Virus record (IMG/VR): IMGVR_UViG_3300020477_000151
Coordinates: 1 to 21,973 of that record
Reading direction: 5' to 3' (one strand)
Source of the DNA: a virus
Length of the DNA: 21,973 bases
Made by a program: the position numbers and the translations under genes. Below are positions 13,699 through 19,000 of the stretch, piece after piece (the stretch's first letter is position 1; each line of letters begins with the position of its first letter). Under the pieces are notes generated by a model. It worked only from the letters and a program-made list of their open reading frames with translations. It made no database searches and was not told the origin of the DNA.

Positions 13699-16600
13699 TT
13701 AGGTCTCTTGAATGAAAGCATACCCATCTTTTTTATCAATAGATATCTGTAAATCAACGCAGTCCTTCAGTGATTCAAGGTGGGAGATTAAAAGAATTGT
13801 TTTGAAATGACTTTTAATTAAGTCAAGGATGGAAACAAAACCGTCCATATTTTCTGCGTCCAAAGCTGTTCCGGGCTCATCTAAGATAAAAACATCTGAC
13901 TTTGGCAAACTTGAAACAGAAAGCAGGGCAAGTCGAATCGCCATGGCGGCAATTGTTTTTTCAGCACCTGAACCCAACTCCAATGGCCTTGGGTCATATT
14001 TAGAGTGCTGTATAAAAATATTTAATTTTCTGTTATCGGACTCAAAAAAGATGTTGAAGTCGACAACATTTGCTAAGGTTTTAGCAATTTCATTATTAAT
14101 AACAGGGAGTTGGCGCTTGATGATTTCATAAGCGATTCCATTAGAATGAACGCATTGCATAAACAAATCATAAGCAGTATACTCCTCGCGAAGAGAATGA
14201 AGCTCATCCTTTTGTTCTTTTAAAAACCGAATCTTTTCTTCAAGAGAGCCGTGCTCTTTATAGAGAGCCAAGATACTTTCTTGACATTCTTCATTATCTG
14301 TGGTTTTATCTTTGATCTCATCTGCTAAAGATTTAATATCCTTCTGAAGCTGCTCTTTGCTTTCAATTATTTCTTTATTAGCATAGTATTCTTCTTTCTG
14401 GTTATATAAGGAGTCTAATTCTTGCTCTAAAAGCAAAAGCTGGTTTTTCAACCCTTTCTTGTCGGATTCAATTACAAGCAATTCTTTTTCAACGTTGTTT
14501 TTCTTTTCAAGTACAGCTTCGTATTTTTGTATATAAGAGTCGACCTTATCTTGATCCAGCGCATCAAGTTCTTTTTGTTCTTGTTTTTGTTGTTCTGAAA
14601 AATCTTTTACAAGTTTAACCAAATCAGGCAGTTCTTTTTTTGCTTCTGAAGCATCTTTAATAAATTTACAATTTGAAAATTTATCTCCACAAGGAACCTC
14701 GTCTAACAAAGTTATCTTTTTTTCGTTTCCTTCAATAAGATTTTGTGTCTTTGTGAGACTATTATCAACTTCCTCTAATATGGAAAGTTTTGCATCTATT
14801 TTGGATCTTTTATCTTTAATGCCGTCTATGTCGAATACAGATAATAAGTCCTCTATTTTATCAAAAACTTTCTTATTATCAACAAGTTTTGCATCACAAA
14901 CTTGTATGCTTGATATAATGTTTTGCTTTTCTTTCTCTTGGGTGTCGATTTCGCCCAAAAGTGAATCAATATTTATAACTTGATTTGGAATGTTTGCAAA
15001 AATCTGTTCAGCTTCTTCTTTCTTTTTTGTGATACTTTTTAGCTCCTCGTCAATTACATCACAGATTTTCTTCTGGGCCGTTGTTTCATTTTCTAAATAC
15101 ATTAGCTGTTTCTCAGCTTCATATATCTCGTCATCAAACTCCTTGCCTTCGAGTCTTTTTAATGCGCCTCGTAAATCGGACGCATCTTCTTTGGCCAGTT
15201 TGAACTTTTTGTCAAACACCTCAAGGTCCAAAAACTTAGCCAATATTTCCTTTCTTTTTGTTGATCCCTCATTGATGAATTGAAGGGCGCCAAGCTGTGA
15301 ACTTAGAGATGTGATAAGAAAGTCTTCTAAGGTGCCGAAATGTTTACGAATAATTTCATCTGTCTCATTCCTTGTAAGACCATTGAGACTTAAAACTTCT
15401 CCGGACACAGTATCTTCTACTCTAAAGTCAACATCTGTTTTGGCTTCAAGGGTTTCTTCACCCTTGAGCTTCTTGACATATTTTTCAGAAGTTCTTTCAA
15501 CAGTATATTTTTTATGACCAACTGAGATTGTGACCTTGCCACAACAACTATCCTTATTTTGGTTAATCACATTCAAGTTCTTTCTTTCATTTTTTGAAGT
15601 GCTATTAAAGATGGTATAAAGAATTCCGTCGATCACGCTAGATTTTCCAGAAAAGTTCTTTCCAAAGAGGCCGACAACTCCATTAAAACGATTAAAGACT
15701 ATTTTATTCTTTTCTCCGTAATTAAAAAGGTTATCCCACTCAAAACTTTCAAGCTTCCAGTTGATATTTCTTTGTATTTCTTCGCTTCCATAAATGATAG
15801 AATTGTATTTCTTGTTTAAGGCGAATATCTTCTCCAATATATTATCGTCCGGTCTAAAGTCTTTCAGATAATCTTTAATTAAATTTTCTTGAACAGCCAC
15901 GTCTCGTAGGTTATCTGAGGCAATGCCATCTGGAAAGTCTGCATTTCTTCTTTTATCTTTGGTGTTGTTAATGAATGTAACTCGTTCTGGTTTAAAGCGA
16001 TGTTTGACAACTTCAATCGCTTTTTTCATTTTGTGCAAAGGGATATTATTCTCAGAAAGTAGCCTAATTCTTGCTCCTTGCGAGATATTCAATTTCGTAG
16101 GCAATCTTCCAGAGCGAGTAAGATGAACAGAAATAAATGGCCTTGGGTTATCAATTGTGATATGTTTTGTGACAAAGTTATCCCTGTCCTTGATGTCCCA
16201 AAGCAAATAACCTTTATCGTTTGTTTCACCAAAGTTTTGTTGAACTGTGCTGCCGCAATAGCGTATTCGGCCCTCTTTGTCTAATGCCTGATTAGTCTTA
16301 TGGATATCGCCTAAAAATGCGAAGTCGTGTCCGTCGAATATGGAAATGTCATCTTCGCCGTTTTCCATAACCCACCCAAGGTCGGTCTGACAATTTGATA
16401 TAGCTCCGTGGTAAACAGCCACGTTAATCCTATCGGTATTAGAAGGAGAAGACCAGTTGCTGCGATCAAAGACACTAAGTACATTAAGACTAAATTCTTT
16501 ATCAAGCTCCACCTCTCCTGAATTTTTTAGAAGGAATAAATTTGGTAAATTTAATGCTTCAACTATCGGGGTGATAGCATCTTGTCGACTACTGTTTTTA

Positions 16601-16854
16601 AGATTACCATCATGGTTCCCTAAAATTATATAGGTTGGAGCCACCCTCGAAAGCCCAGTTAAAAATTCAGAGCATAGTTCAACATACTCTGGAGACAGCT
16701 GAGTTTTCGAGTGCGCTATGTCCCCGCAATGAATAATAAAATCAACTTCTTCCTCTTTGATGCTCTCAAAAAGCTTTTTAAATACCGCGCGGTACTCCGA
16801 ATGGTATTTAAGATTGCGGATGTGTGTATCTGCGATGTGTGCAAATTTAGCCAT
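13699..16854 (-). CDS. Fused Mre11-Rad50 (SbcD-SbcC, gp47-gp46) recombination nuclease
   Basis: One 1051-residue polypeptide carries both halves of the DNA-end-processing complex. Residues 1 to about 350 are an Mre11-type phosphoesterase with metal ligands in ADTHI (Asp9, His11), CGDIAH (Asp45), GNHD (Asn80, His81), YHGAI (His149) and GDIHK (His185). From about 365 a Rad50-type ABC ATPase begins, with Walker A GKNFSGKS (398-405), long coiled coils (about 540-900), a hook-like Cys722/Cys729 pair, signature LGSGAEK (960-966), Walker B FILDEP and H-loop His1025. In T4 these are separate genes, 47 and 46, needed for recombination-dependent replication and host DNA degradation. The start overlaps the primase stop by eight bases, with GGAG upstream. 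No stop or frameshift separates the halves. Confidence 0.93.
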   Translation of the reverse strand: MAKFAHIADTHIRNLKYHSEYRAVFKKLFESIKEEEVDFIIHCGDIAHSKTQLSPEYVELCSEFLTGLSRVAPTYIILGNHDGNLKNSSRQDAITPIVEALNLPNLFLLKNSGEVELDKEFSLNVLSVFDRSNWSSPSNTDRINVAVYHGAISNCQTDLGWVMENGEDDISIFDGHDFAFLGDIHKTNQALDKEGRIRYCGSTVQQNFGETNDKGYLLWDIKDRDNFVTKHITIDNPRPFISVHLTRSGRLPTKLNISQGARIRLLSENNIPLHKMKKAIEVVKHRFKPERVTFINNTKDKRRNADFPDGIASDNLRDVAVQENLIKDYLKDFRPDDNILEKIFALNKKYNSIIYGSEEIQRNINWKLESFEWDNLFNYGEKNKIVFNRFNGVVGLFGKNFSGKSSVIDGILYTIFNSTSKNERKNLNVINQNKDSCCGKVTISVGHKKYTVERTSEKYVKKLKGEETLEAKTDVDFRVEDTVSGEVLSLNGLTRNETDEIIRKHFGTLEDFLITSLSSQLGALQFINEGSTKRKEILAKFLDLEVFDKKFKLAKEDASDLRGALKRLEGKEFDDEIYEAEKQLMYLENETTAQKKICDVIDEELKSITKKKEEAEQIFANIPNQVINIDSLLGEIDTQEKEKQNIISSIQVCDAKLVDNKKVFDKIEDLLSVFDIDGIKDKRSKIDAKLSILEEVDNSLTKTQNLIEGNEKKITLLDEVPCGDKFSNCKFIKDASEAKKELPDLVKLVKDFSEQQKQEQKELDALDQDKVDSYIQKYEAVLEKKNNVEKELLVIESDKKGLKNQLLLLEQELDSLYNQKEEYYANKEIIESKEQLQKDIKSLADEIKDKTTDNEECQESILALYKEHGSLEEKIRFLKEQKDELHSLREEYTAYDLFMQCVHSNGIAYEIIKRQLPVINNEIAKTLANVVDFNIFFESDNRKLNIFIQHSKYDPRPLELGSGAEKTIAAMAIRLALLSVSSLPKSDVFILDEPGTALDAENMDGFVSILDLIKSHFKTILLISHLESLKDCVDLQISIDKKDGYAFIQET

Positions 16855-17773
16855 AATTTCTCCATTGTAAATCCATCACATTTTCAAATGTCATTGGTAC
16901 TGCTTTTTTTATAAGTTCTGCAGTTTTTCTTTTAGAGATGGAACCAATATCTTCAATGTTAGAAGTGTTAATGTTGTAAACTTCCAAACCATGTTGTAAC
17001 AAATTACTAACCGTTTGTAAAGTTTTTTTTATTGCATCGTGATCAAAACCCAAATAGATTTTTGACTCATTGGTCACAAGGCGCTGAAACAATCTCGAAT
17101 TAACATTCAACGTCGAACCAAGAACAGGTATACTGTTTCTTGCTTTAATCGAGTCGAACGCGCCTTCAACAAGAATAATAGGACTTTTCCAGTCAATCAG
17201 AAGCTCATTAAAAATAATGTTGTTAGATGACACAGGGGGGTTTTTATATTTGTACCAATTATTTGTGTAGCTTCTTGCAATAAAATAGTTGCAGTCACCT
17301 GCATCATTGAAAGAAGGAAAAATTATTCTATTCTTGTACTTTCCCTTCTTGCAATAGCCAATCTTATAATATATGATATCTTGCTTTGACATACCACGGG
17401 TGGATAAATATTGAAGTGGTTCTTTGGATGAATAGGATAATTTCTTGTTCCCCAAACAAATAAACTCTTTGGGTAGCTGGGTTGTCGGTTCTTCTTGTTC
17501 TTTAATATCAAAAAAAGATTTCGGCTCGGACATATCAATGGACTGGGTTAGCAACGCCCATTGGTGTTTATCTGACTGTGACGCATATCGCCTCACAAGA
17601 TAATTCAAGTTCCCCTTTGAATTGCACACCCAGCATTTGAAAACATTTAATCTTAGATTAACCGAGAGCTTCTTTTTGTGATGCTCGCAGAAAGGACACT
17701 TAAAAAGGAATTCATCTTTGCTTTTATAATAGTATCCAAGAAAGTTTTCAAAAATCTTGATTTTTTCTTTCAT
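16847..17773 (-). CDS. DNA primase, DnaG/gp61-type zinc-finger and TOPRIM protein
   Basis: This 308-residue primase lays RNA primers for lagging-strand synthesis, acting with the phage replicative helicase. The N-terminal zinc finger has Cys26-x2-Cys29 (CPFC) and Cys47-x2-Cys50 (CWVC). A central catalytic section includes LSTRGMSKQDIIYYKIGY and NRIIFPSFNDAGD (about residues 123-160). A TOPRIM domain supplies Glu203-Gly204 (ILVEGAFDSIKA) and the Asp-x-Asp pair Asp244/Asp246 (GFDHDA). It is close in size to T4 gp61 (about 340) and lacks a fused helicase. The ATG overlaps the phosphomannomutase-like stop in an ATGA arrangement, so the two are translationally coupled. No helicase gene lies in this window. 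Confidence 0.92.
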   Translation of the reverse strand: MKEKIKIFENFLGYYYKSKDEFLFKCPFCEHHKKKLSVNLRLNVFKCWVCNSKGNLNYLVRRYASQSDKHQWALLTQSIDMSEPKSFFDIKEQEEPTTQLPKEFICLGNKKLSYSSKEPLQYLSTRGMSKQDIIYYKIGYCKKGKYKNRIIFPSFNDAGDCNYFIARSYTNNWYKYKNPPVSSNNIIFNELLIDWKSPIILVEGAFDSIKARNSIPVLGSTLNVNSRLFQRLVTNESKIYLGFDHDAIKKTLQTVSNLLQHGLEVYNINTSNIEDIGSISKRKTAELIKKAVPMTFENVMDLQWRNYG

Positions 17774-18483
17774 AAAGTTCGTAGTATTTTTTCAGTATCT
17801 AAATACGAGTTAATACTATAAACAAAATCTTTTTCCTTGTCAAGCTTTTTTGCAAGGGCGTAGTCATTTCCGCCGGGTTCAGTTCTGTCTCCGAAAAAAT
17901 GATAAGTGGCATGTGGTATGTGATCTAAGATTTGAGACTTGTCCCACCCTTTGGGGTAAATATCAATGCTTATTTCTCCCCCAACAGCTGCTTCAATGTC
18001 TTCTAGTTCCGTGTTGATTCGTTCGGCAATACGTGTTCTTTCGTTATTTTTTTTATCCCATTCATAATAGCTTTTTCTTTGCTCATAAGGGGCGTTGCGA
18101 CCGACTGTGGAGAAGTTAATCATGCCGACTCTTTCCTCAACATGCTTTCCGAAAGTTGGTCGATAGGAGGTGTTCTCAAGCTCTTGTTGCAAAATATCCC
18201 ATAATTTCTTTGGGGCGTTAAACGTTCTTTTCGAGATGCTGTGTCCTTTAACGTGCAGCGTGTTCCCCATACAGCCAAAGACACCCTGAACAGAACACAA
18301 AATATCTTCCGGAACTTGTTCTTGTAGTTTTTTGTAATCACTACCAGAAATTAGATAGACTAGCTTGTCTTCTGCCCAATGTTTAAAAAAAGAATAAAAT
18401 TCGTCCGTCATTCGTTGTCGTGCGGGGGTCAAAGTTCCGTCCACGTCAAACAAAAAAACATTTTTAAGAGTTGTGTCTGTCAT
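17770..18483 (-). CDS. Eukaryotic-type phosphomannomutase (HAD superfamily)
   Basis: This 237-residue protein matches the eukaryotic phosphomannomutase family (PMM/Sec53), which interconverts mannose 6-phosphate and mannose 1-phosphate, the precursor of GDP-mannose. The HAD motif DVDGTLTPAR is at residues 13-22, with candidate nucleophile and acid/base Asp13 and Asp15. The cap region keeps the phosphate-binding arginines in ERVGMINFSTVGRN (Arg118, Arg129) and EQRKSYYEWDKK (Arg136). The C-terminal core has ISIDIYPKGWDKSQIL (residues 171-186) and FFGDRTEPGGNDYA (196-209), both near-diagnostic. Length is close to the 245-255 typical of the family. It overlaps the resolvase gene by 20 bases and the primase by four. 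A related sugar- or nucleotide-phosphatase role remains possible. Confidence 0.88.
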   Translation of the reverse strand: MTDTTLKNVFLFDVDGTLTPARQRMTDEFYSFFKHWAEDKLVYLISGSDYKKLQEQVPEDILCSVQGVFGCMGNTLHVKGHSISKRTFNAPKKLWDILQQELENTSYRPTFGKHVEERVGMINFSTVGRNAPYEQRKSYYEWDKKNNERTRIAERINTELEDIEAAVGGEISIDIYPKGWDKSQILDHIPHATYHFFGDRTEPGGNDYALAKKLDKEKDFVYSINSYLDTEKILRTL

Positions 18484-19000
18484 CTAGCTCCAGTTGACCA
18501 GCTTTAGCAACAACAATCGCATCTGCGATGTCGTAATATTTTGGTTTAGGATTTCCATAGCTAGTATATTCTACCACAAAAGAGGATTCATTAGCAAGCA
18601 ACCATTTAATAATTGTTTTTTTTGTGTTAACACCTCTTGGAACTTTTATGCCGCACAGCTTTCTCGCGTGTTGTGCAGTATAATACACTGGCTTTTTGTC
18701 AAAAATAGAAAAACACATCCAAGAGATGATGCCATTGAACTTTTGAAGGCTTGCCATTGTTTTCGCGGACGACTTTCCGGAGCCAAAAAAGGTAAACGGT
18801 TTTTCAATGATAACCTTTTCAATGGGAAATTGTGCTTTAATCTCACACAAATTTTCTTTTATAATTTGTGCTTTGTCAAAGATGGTAGGGAACTTGTTTT
18901 TATTCCTAACATCCCAAGCATCTGCTCTAATCACCTCTCCAGAGGTGTCAAGAACACAGAAACCAGTTATACTGGTACTAATATCGAGTCCTAAAATCAT
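18464..19000 (-). CDS. RuvC-like Holliday junction resolvase
   Basis: This 178-residue RNase H-fold nuclease probably cleaves Holliday and branched junctions before or during packaging, the job done in T4 by the unrelated gp49. It begins LGLDISTSITGF, with Asp6 as first metal ligand. Then come Glu66 in KVIIEKPF and the acidic pair Asp157/Asp160 in YYDIADAIVVA, the RuvC-type catalytic set in the usual order and spacing. Between them is the DNA-binding helix region with GKSSAKTMASLQKFNG and a basic VPRGVNTKKTI segment. The ATG at 19000 follows the upstream structural gene by 13 bases with AAGGA about 11 bases before it, and its 3' end overlaps the phosphomannomutase start. It heads the recombination/replication operon. 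Confidence 0.88.
   Translation of the reverse strand: MILGLDISTSITGFCVLDTSGEVIRADAWDVRNKNKFPTIFDKAQIIKENLCEIKAQFPIEKVIIEKPFTFFGSGKSSAKTMASLQKFNGIISWMCFSIFDKKPVYYTAQHARKLCGIKVPRGVNTKKTIIKWLLANESSFVVEYTSYGNPKPKYYDIADAIVVAKAGQLELDDRHNS

What the first reader, a model, noticed from the sequence alone, without database searches (positions are those of the whole stretch)
17770..18483. Eukaryotic-type phosphomannomutase inside a phage replication operon
The HAD motif DVDGTLT, the GRN/EQR cap arginines, YPKGWDK and FFGDRTEPGGND match the PMM/Sec53 family in order. That family is typical of eukaryotes; most bacteria instead use the unrelated phosphohexomutase family (ManB/AlgC). The gene is wedged by overlaps between a RuvC-like resolvase and the primase, so it is made with replication proteins. 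It may supply mannose-1-phosphate for GDP-sugar synthesis (DNA or virion glycosylation, or altering host surface glycans), or it may have been repurposed as a phosphatase in DNA metabolism.
Basis: partly seen in the sequence, partly recalled or inferred. Interest (0 to 1): 0.72.

Follow-up and report, generated by a model that had tools for sequence, protein, structure and literature searches.

The report
Phage-encoded HAD-type phosphomannomutase
A marine T4-like phage carries a mannose-activating enzyme of the kind best known from animals and fungi, probably acquired from bacteria, and it most likely feeds phage-encoded synthesis of mannose- and fucose-type sugars rather than DNA replication.

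Summary
Window 17770-18483 (-) encodes a 237-aa HAD-type phosphomannomutase (PMM). PF03332 scores 117 bits against 22 for the generic hydrolase family. The AlphaFold model (pLDDT 93.6) matches human PMM2 at Z 28. The catalytic Asp pair and six checked substrate-binding residues are all present.

Two parts of the interpretation change. First, the nearest cellular relatives are bacterial or archaeal, not eukaryotic; several lie beside mannose-1-phosphate guanylyltransferase genes. Second, the replication context looks incidental: close sister phages have RuvC touching or nearly touching primase with no PMM, and the two nearest PMM orthologues (57-58%) sit elsewhere in their genomes.

Related phages carry the rest of a mannose/fucose pathway. 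GDP-mannose dehydratase occurs in 9 of 13 PMM-bearing contigs of at least 40 kb and 0 of 19 random ones, and in the window's closest long relative. In other phages PMM lies near a mannose-6-phosphate isomerase, an RfaE-like nucleotidyltransferase, or both. Most lack a canonical guanylyltransferase.

Best reading: PMM supplies mannose-1-phosphate for phage-directed sugar-nucleotide synthesis. This is inferred from homology and gene context; no activity was measured, and the 22-kb window shows only the PMM step.

The parts
17770..18483 (-). HAD-type phosphomannomutase CDS, 237 aa
   Evidence: PF03332 117.3 bits; AlphaFold model Z 28 to human PMM2
18433..18447 (-). catalytic motif DVDGT (D13 nucleophile, D15 acid/base)
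   Evidence: aligned to PMM2 D12/D14; D13, D15, G16, T17 invariant in 23 viral homologues
18076..18132 (-). cap-domain phosphate-binding arginines R118, R129, R136
   Evidence: aligned to PMM2 R123, R134, R141; all three invariant in alignment A2
17938..17982 (-). GGEISIDIYPKGWDK, holds S172 and D174
   Evidence: aligned to PMM2 S179/D181; D174 invariant; S172 is replaced by Gly in S-SSM7, P-TIM68, L003, L006
17863..17898 (-). FFGDRTEPGGND metal/HAD motif 4
   Evidence: F196, G198, D199, N206, D207 invariant
18464..19000 (-). RuvC-like resolvase, overlaps PMM start by 20 nt
   Evidence: PHROG 159 E 1.1e-13; conserved in sister phages
16847..17773 (-). DnaG-like primase, overlaps PMM end by 4 nt
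   Evidence: PHROG 47 E 1.7e-40; follows RuvC directly, without PMM, in L027 and G033
13699..16854 (-). SbcD-SbcC fusion nuclease, part of the conserved neighbourhood
   Evidence: PHROG 77 and 100; conserved synteny

Best explanation
The gene encodes a working phosphomannomutase that interconverts mannose-6-phosphate and mannose-1-phosphate through a phospho-Asp13 intermediate. The phage makes it during infection to push hexose phosphate into activated mannose. That pool then feeds a phage-encoded GDP-mannose to GDP-4-keto-6-deoxymannose to GDP-fucose branch and glycosyltransferases that decorate the virion or the host surface. The gene is mobile cargo, of bacterial descent, that happens to sit at a variable site between RuvC and primase in this phage. 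Shown by computation: family, fold, catalytic residues, bacterial affinity, site variability, co-occurrence of GMD/FCL/MPI in related PMM-bearing phages. Inferred: catalytic activity, flux direction, that this particular phage has the downstream genes (its 22 kb fragment does not reach them), and the glycan target.
For: Profile, PDB sequence and fold matches, all led by PMMs. Active-site residues kept. Bacterial/archaeal PMM genes of the same family lie next to ManC or GMP in L104, L092, L116, L135. GMD-strength PF16363 hits (387-440 bits) in G001, G008, G009, G011, G012, G013, G016, G019, G020: 9 of 13 PMM-bearing contigs >=40 kb against 0 of 19 random contigs >=40 kb. The closest long relative, G033 (TerL 88% identical), has GMD (441.8 bits) adjoined by an FCL-like epimerase. 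FCL and GT11 in G019's cluster. The window PMM's nearest orthologue (58%, G019) lies about 1.5 kb from a type II MPI domain. A published cyanophage, S-SCSM1, has MPI + GMD + GDP-fucose synthase + fucosyltransferases (PMC9602691).
Against: The 22 kb window itself has no GMD and no PF01467 nucleotidyltransferase, and no MPI domain among the nine window proteins scanned. Canonical GMP (PF00483) was found in only 2 of 28 records. Some PMM-bearing phages (S-SSM7, P-TIM68, AB1I1M-1, Ab1-TPeters) have no GMD-strength hit. The co-occurrence sample is small, not corrected for relatedness, and biased to longer contigs (40-110 kb only: 3/7 against 0/18, p 0.015).
Confidence: 0.68

Rival explanations
1. 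It is mainly an alpha-phosphoglucomutase (glucose-6-phosphate to glucose-1-phosphate), like the Lactococcus enzyme of the same HAD branch, feeding UDP- or dTDP-glucose synthesis or DNA glucosylation.
For: The Lactococcus alpha-PGM (4bnd) is a relative. Clade C relative AB1I1M-1 sits near beta-glucosyltransferase genes and has a PF00483 nucleotidyltransferase. Eukaryotic PMM1/PMM2 act on both sugars (own knowledge).
Against: The model is far closer to true PMMs (Z 24-28) than to 4bnd (Z 18.6). MPI and GMD, not glucose enzymes, accompany the gene.
Confidence: 0.14
2. The PMM-like enzyme works in a heptose route: with an RfaE-domain-II nucleotidyltransferase it makes ADP- or GDP-manno-heptose rather than a mannose nucleotide.
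For: RfaE-domain-II-like genes lie within 6.5 kb of PMM in 15 of 30 records, adjacent in five. Heptose is a manno-sugar; some GMD-like enzymes act on GDP-heptose (own knowledge).
Against: [quoted passage not shown] RfaE hits are well below the equivalog cut-off. The window's own relatives show no such gene near PMM.
Confidence: 0.08
3. It is a repurposed sugar-phosphate or nucleotide phosphatase in DNA metabolism, made with the replication genes.
For: Overlaps with RuvC and primase. In G013, G019, G020 the PMM also lies among replication genes. IMP-nucleotidases are distant fold relatives.
Against: All mutase-specific residues checked are kept; IMP-nucleotidase Z is about half that of PMM. L027 and G033 lack the gene at this site.
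Confidence: 0.06

Closest known systems
Eukaryotic PMM1/PMM2/Sec53 (PF03332)
   Same: Fold over residues 6-237, catalytic Asp pair, cap arginines, motif order; 30-34% identity in structural alignment.
   Different: Phage gene; places among bacterial/archaeal PMMs rather than with PMM2.
HAD-type PMMs of Marinimicrobia, Alphaproteobacteria, Bacteroidota, Elusimicrobiota and Lokiarchaea
   Same: Up to 48% identity, the closest cellular relatives; some beside ManC/GMP.
   Different: In Marinimicrobia and Bacteroidota the neighbours scanned are unrelated to mannose; the phage gene sits in a replication neighbourhood.
S-SSM7 SSSM7_237 and P-TIM68 gp126 (annotated hypothetical)
   Same: Phage PMM homologues, 38% and 34% identity.
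   Different: Different clade; substrate-binding Ser replaced by Gly.
Cyanophage S-SCSM1 mannose/GDP-fucose gene set (PMC9602691)
   Same: Phage MPI + GMD + GDP-fucose synthase + fucosyltransferases.
   Different: No PMM is mentioned in that paper.
Lactococcus lactis alpha-phosphoglucomutase 4bnd
   Same: HAD fold, same branch.
   Different: 20% identity, Z 18.6.

Membership tests
HAD-type phosphomannomutase (PF03332) | Profile match above the curated cut-off and better than generic HAD | tested here: met
   117.3 vs cut-off 22.4; Hydrolase_3 22.2 bits; Cof TIGR00099 20.7 vs cut-off 137
HAD-type phosphomannomutase (PF03332) | Asp nucleophile and general acid/base Asp (DxD) | tested here: met
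   D13/D15 align to PMM2 D12/D14
HAD-type phosphomannomutase (PF03332) | Phosphate-binding Arg21/123/134/141 and Ser179/Asp181 (PMM2 numbering) | tested here: met
   R22, R118, R129, R136, S172, D174
HAD-type phosphomannomutase (PF03332) | Core plus cap fold of PMM | tested here: met
   Model pLDDT 93.6; top 22 Foldseek rows are PMMs; Z 28.0, rmsd 1.7 over 229 residues to 7o58_A
HAD-type phosphomannomutase (PF03332) | Mannose-6-phosphate/mannose-1-phosphate mutase activity | not testable with these tools
   needs an enzyme assay
HAD-type phosphomannomutase (PF03332) | Homodimer through the cap domain | not tested
   no complex was predicted
Phosphohexomutase family (ManB/AlgC) | Match to the alpha-D-phosphohexomutase Pfam domains | tested here: not met
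   Pfam scan at E<=0.01 returned only PMM and Hydrolase_3
HAD-type alpha-phosphoglucomutase (4bnd-like) | Closer structural match to 4bnd than to PMM | tested here: not met
   Z 18.6 against 23.9-28.0 for PMMs; substrate preference itself untested
Phage GDP-mannose/GDP-fucose gene set | GMD, FCL or MPI genes in the same genome | tested here: inconclusive
   None seen in the 22 kb fragment; GMD present in sister phages G033, G019, G020, MPI in G019

The most novel reading that the evidence does not exclude
Large phages use a self-contained but unorthodox route to activated mannose: type II mannose-6-phosphate isomerase, HAD-type PMM, and an RfaE-domain-II-like nucleotidyltransferase standing in for the canonical mannose-1-phosphate guanylyltransferase. 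Support: the nucleotidyltransferase lies within 6.5 kb of PMM on the same strand in 15 of 30 PMM-bearing records (random placement mean 5.6); MPI within 7 kb in 5 of 7 records that hold both; a phage protein fuses the nucleotidyltransferase to the MPI domain, the layout of ManC with the guanylyltransferase part exchanged (L355:3792-4559). Distance limits were set after seeing the data, and the window itself shows only the PMM.
Probability: 0.33. Interest if true: 0.68.

Novelty: new member of a known kind. Interest (0 to 1): 0.46.

Why it matters
Phage sugar-nucleotide genes are usually read as scattered host-like extras. A recurring PMM, in at least three separated branches of the tree and often beside MPI, RfaE-like nucleotidyltransferase or with GMD genes, suggests that large marine phages control mannose activation from its early steps. 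It gives a likely function to phage proteins filed as hypothetical (phrog_29277; S-SSM7, P-TIM68) and poses a testable question: which enzyme makes the mannose nucleotide when the canonical guanylyltransferase is missing. It also shows that an enzyme labelled 'eukaryotic' in Pfam has a bacterial branch from which phages draw.

Tried and rejected
Generic Cof/sucrose-phosphatase HAD: rejected by profile and fold scores. Eukaryotic origin: the tree puts the window among bacterial/archaeal PMMs, although only two eukaryotic sequences were included and the bacterial sample was selected by likeness to the window. Functional coupling to replication from gene overlap: empty sites in L027 and G033, and variable cargo at the same gap in other sisters, argue against it. 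GMD-bearing phages as a sample for PMM: only 3 of 19 carry PMM, not distinguishable from random (p 0.23), so GMD does not predict PMM; the link runs from PMM to GMD. Literature: no paper in the held library describes PMM as a cyanophage gene; one query failed on syntax. The RuvC-like protein found no relative in the phage collection, so the phage could not be named; TerL is nearest to Flavobacterium phage immuto at 45%.

Full report
What is there. The minus-strand ORF at 17770-18483 encodes 237 residues. It overlaps a RuvC-like gene by 20 nt and a primase gene by 4 nt. Pfam gives PF03332 (PMM) at 117.3 bits and Hydrolase_3 at 22.2 bits; NCBIfam gives only the HAD-IIB superfamily and a sub-threshold Cof hit. 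The best solved relatives by sequence are PMM2 proteins. An AlphaFold model built on an 18-sequence phage alignment has mean pLDDT 93.6. The first 22 Foldseek rows are PMMs, and VIA-align gives Z 28.0, rmsd 1.7 over 229 residues to human PMM2; the Lactococcus alpha-PGM follows at 18.6 and phosphatases at 17 and below. Every PMM2 catalytic or substrate-binding residue I checked by alignment has its counterpart, including the Asp pair, four arginines, Ser179 and Asp181. The choice and numbering of these PMM2 residues is from my own knowledge of the family.

Where it comes from. A scan of GTDB species genomes found 112 places encoding relatives, the best 80 in Marinimicrobia, Alphaproteobacteria, Bacteroidota, Elusimicrobiota, Lokiarchaea and a few others. 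In a maximum-likelihood tree the window groups with PMMs of sister phages G019 and G020 (99/96) inside a set of bacterial and archaeal PMMs, apart from human and Candida PMM and from a second large viral clade. Viral sequences need at least three changes of label on supported branches, so phages probably acquired this family more than once. Several cellular copies lie next to ManC or GMP, which supports a mannose role for the non-eukaryotic branch. Limits: two eukaryotic sequences only, and cellular sequences chosen by likeness to the window.

Why the replication context is weak evidence. In eleven sister loci the order g21327-g20237-g19014-RuvC-primase is conserved. In L027 RuvC overlaps primase with no PMM between them; in G033, whose TerL is 88% identical to the window's, 55 bp separate the two. 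Other sisters carry unrelated small genes in the same gap. The closest PMM orthologues, at 57-58% identity, lie elsewhere, in G019 and G020 near a 5'-exonuclease-like gene and a helicase-like gene (these two names are from reading the sequences, not from a profile search). The gene is therefore cargo. It does keep company with early genes in several phages, so early expression is possible.

What it probably feeds. Nine of 13 PMM-bearing phage contigs of 40 kb or more have a GMD-strength match, against 0 of 19 random contigs of that size (Fisher p 2.5e-5; 40-110 kb only, 3/7 against 0/18, p 0.015). NCBIfam names G020's protein GMD above the equivalog cut-off (432 against 415 bits) and puts the G019 and G001 proteins just below it (389 and 397); next to G019's lies a GDP-fucose synthase-like protein and a GT11 transferase. 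G033 carries GMD and an adjoining epimerase beside baseplate-type genes. A type II MPI domain is present in several of these phages, within 7 kb of PMM in five of seven records that hold both, including about 1.5 kb away in G019. A cyanophage with MPI, GMD, GDP-fucose synthase and fucosyltransferases is published (PMC9602691). PMM would fill the step between MPI and the guanylyltransferase.

The missing step. Canonical GMP (PF00483) was found in only 2 of 28 records. Instead, RfaE-domain-II-like nucleotidyltransferases (PF01467; TIGR02199 below its equivalog cut-off) lie within 6.5 kb of PMM on the same strand in 15 of 30 records, immediately adjacent in G002, G007, G009, G011 and Ab1-TPeters, which span three PMM clades. 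Random placement gives 5.6 on average; for records of 40 kb or more it is 10 of 20 against 2.5 expected. A phage contig without PMM encodes one protein with such a nucleotidyltransferase domain followed by the MPI domain (L355:3792-4559). S-SSM7 and P-TIM68, two PMM-bearing isolates, also encode close relatives of that nucleotidyltransferase. This suggests, without showing, that it activates mannose-1-phosphate. The distance limits were chosen after seeing the positions. The window and its nearest relatives show no such gene near PMM, so the host's guanylyltransferase may serve there.

Shown and inferred. Shown by computation: identity, fold, residues, bacterial affinity, site variability, gene company. 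Inferred: enzyme activity, the direction of flux, the presence of downstream genes in this very phage, the glycan and its purpose. The host is unknown; TerL is nearest to a Flavobacterium phage at 45%.

Verdict. A real PMM, ordinary as an enzyme and new as a named phage gene so far as the held literature shows. It is interesting mainly for the pathway it points to.

Noticed in passing
L038:6506-7009, L039:6560-7045, L040:5961-6392, L041:6977-8059, L042:8369-8749: Sister phages carry small proteins that share the leader MKLTKSKLKQLIKEE and then diverge, up to four in a row near the RuvC/primase gap; similar leaders in L010, L021 and L177. They look like T4-type capsid-targeting leaders of injected internal head proteins.
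   Followed up: no
L355:3792-4559: A 255-aa phage protein fuses an RfaE-domain-II-like nucleotidyltransferase to a type II mannose-6-phosphate isomerase domain, like ManC with the guanylyltransferase part exchanged.
   Followed up: partly
L011:9391-10029, L015:10778-11392, L356:3522-4121: A class II aldolase-like gene (PF00596 in L011) lies next to or near PMM in three clade-B phages; role in the cassette unknown.
   Followed up: partly
window 13699-16854: SbcD and SbcC are fused in one 1051-aa protein, conserved in sister phages; P-TIM68 has them as separate genes.
   Followed up: no
L025:3995-4744, L026:3992-4747: Acinetobacter phage relatives (clade C) lack the active-site Arg22 equivalent; they may have another substrate, and in L026 the gene follows an RfaE-like nucleotidyltransferase.
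   Followed up: partly
L058:14929-15984: A 351-aa protein in G019's sugar cluster seems to join a weak MobA-like nucleotidyltransferase half to a HAD half; function unknown.
   Followed up: no
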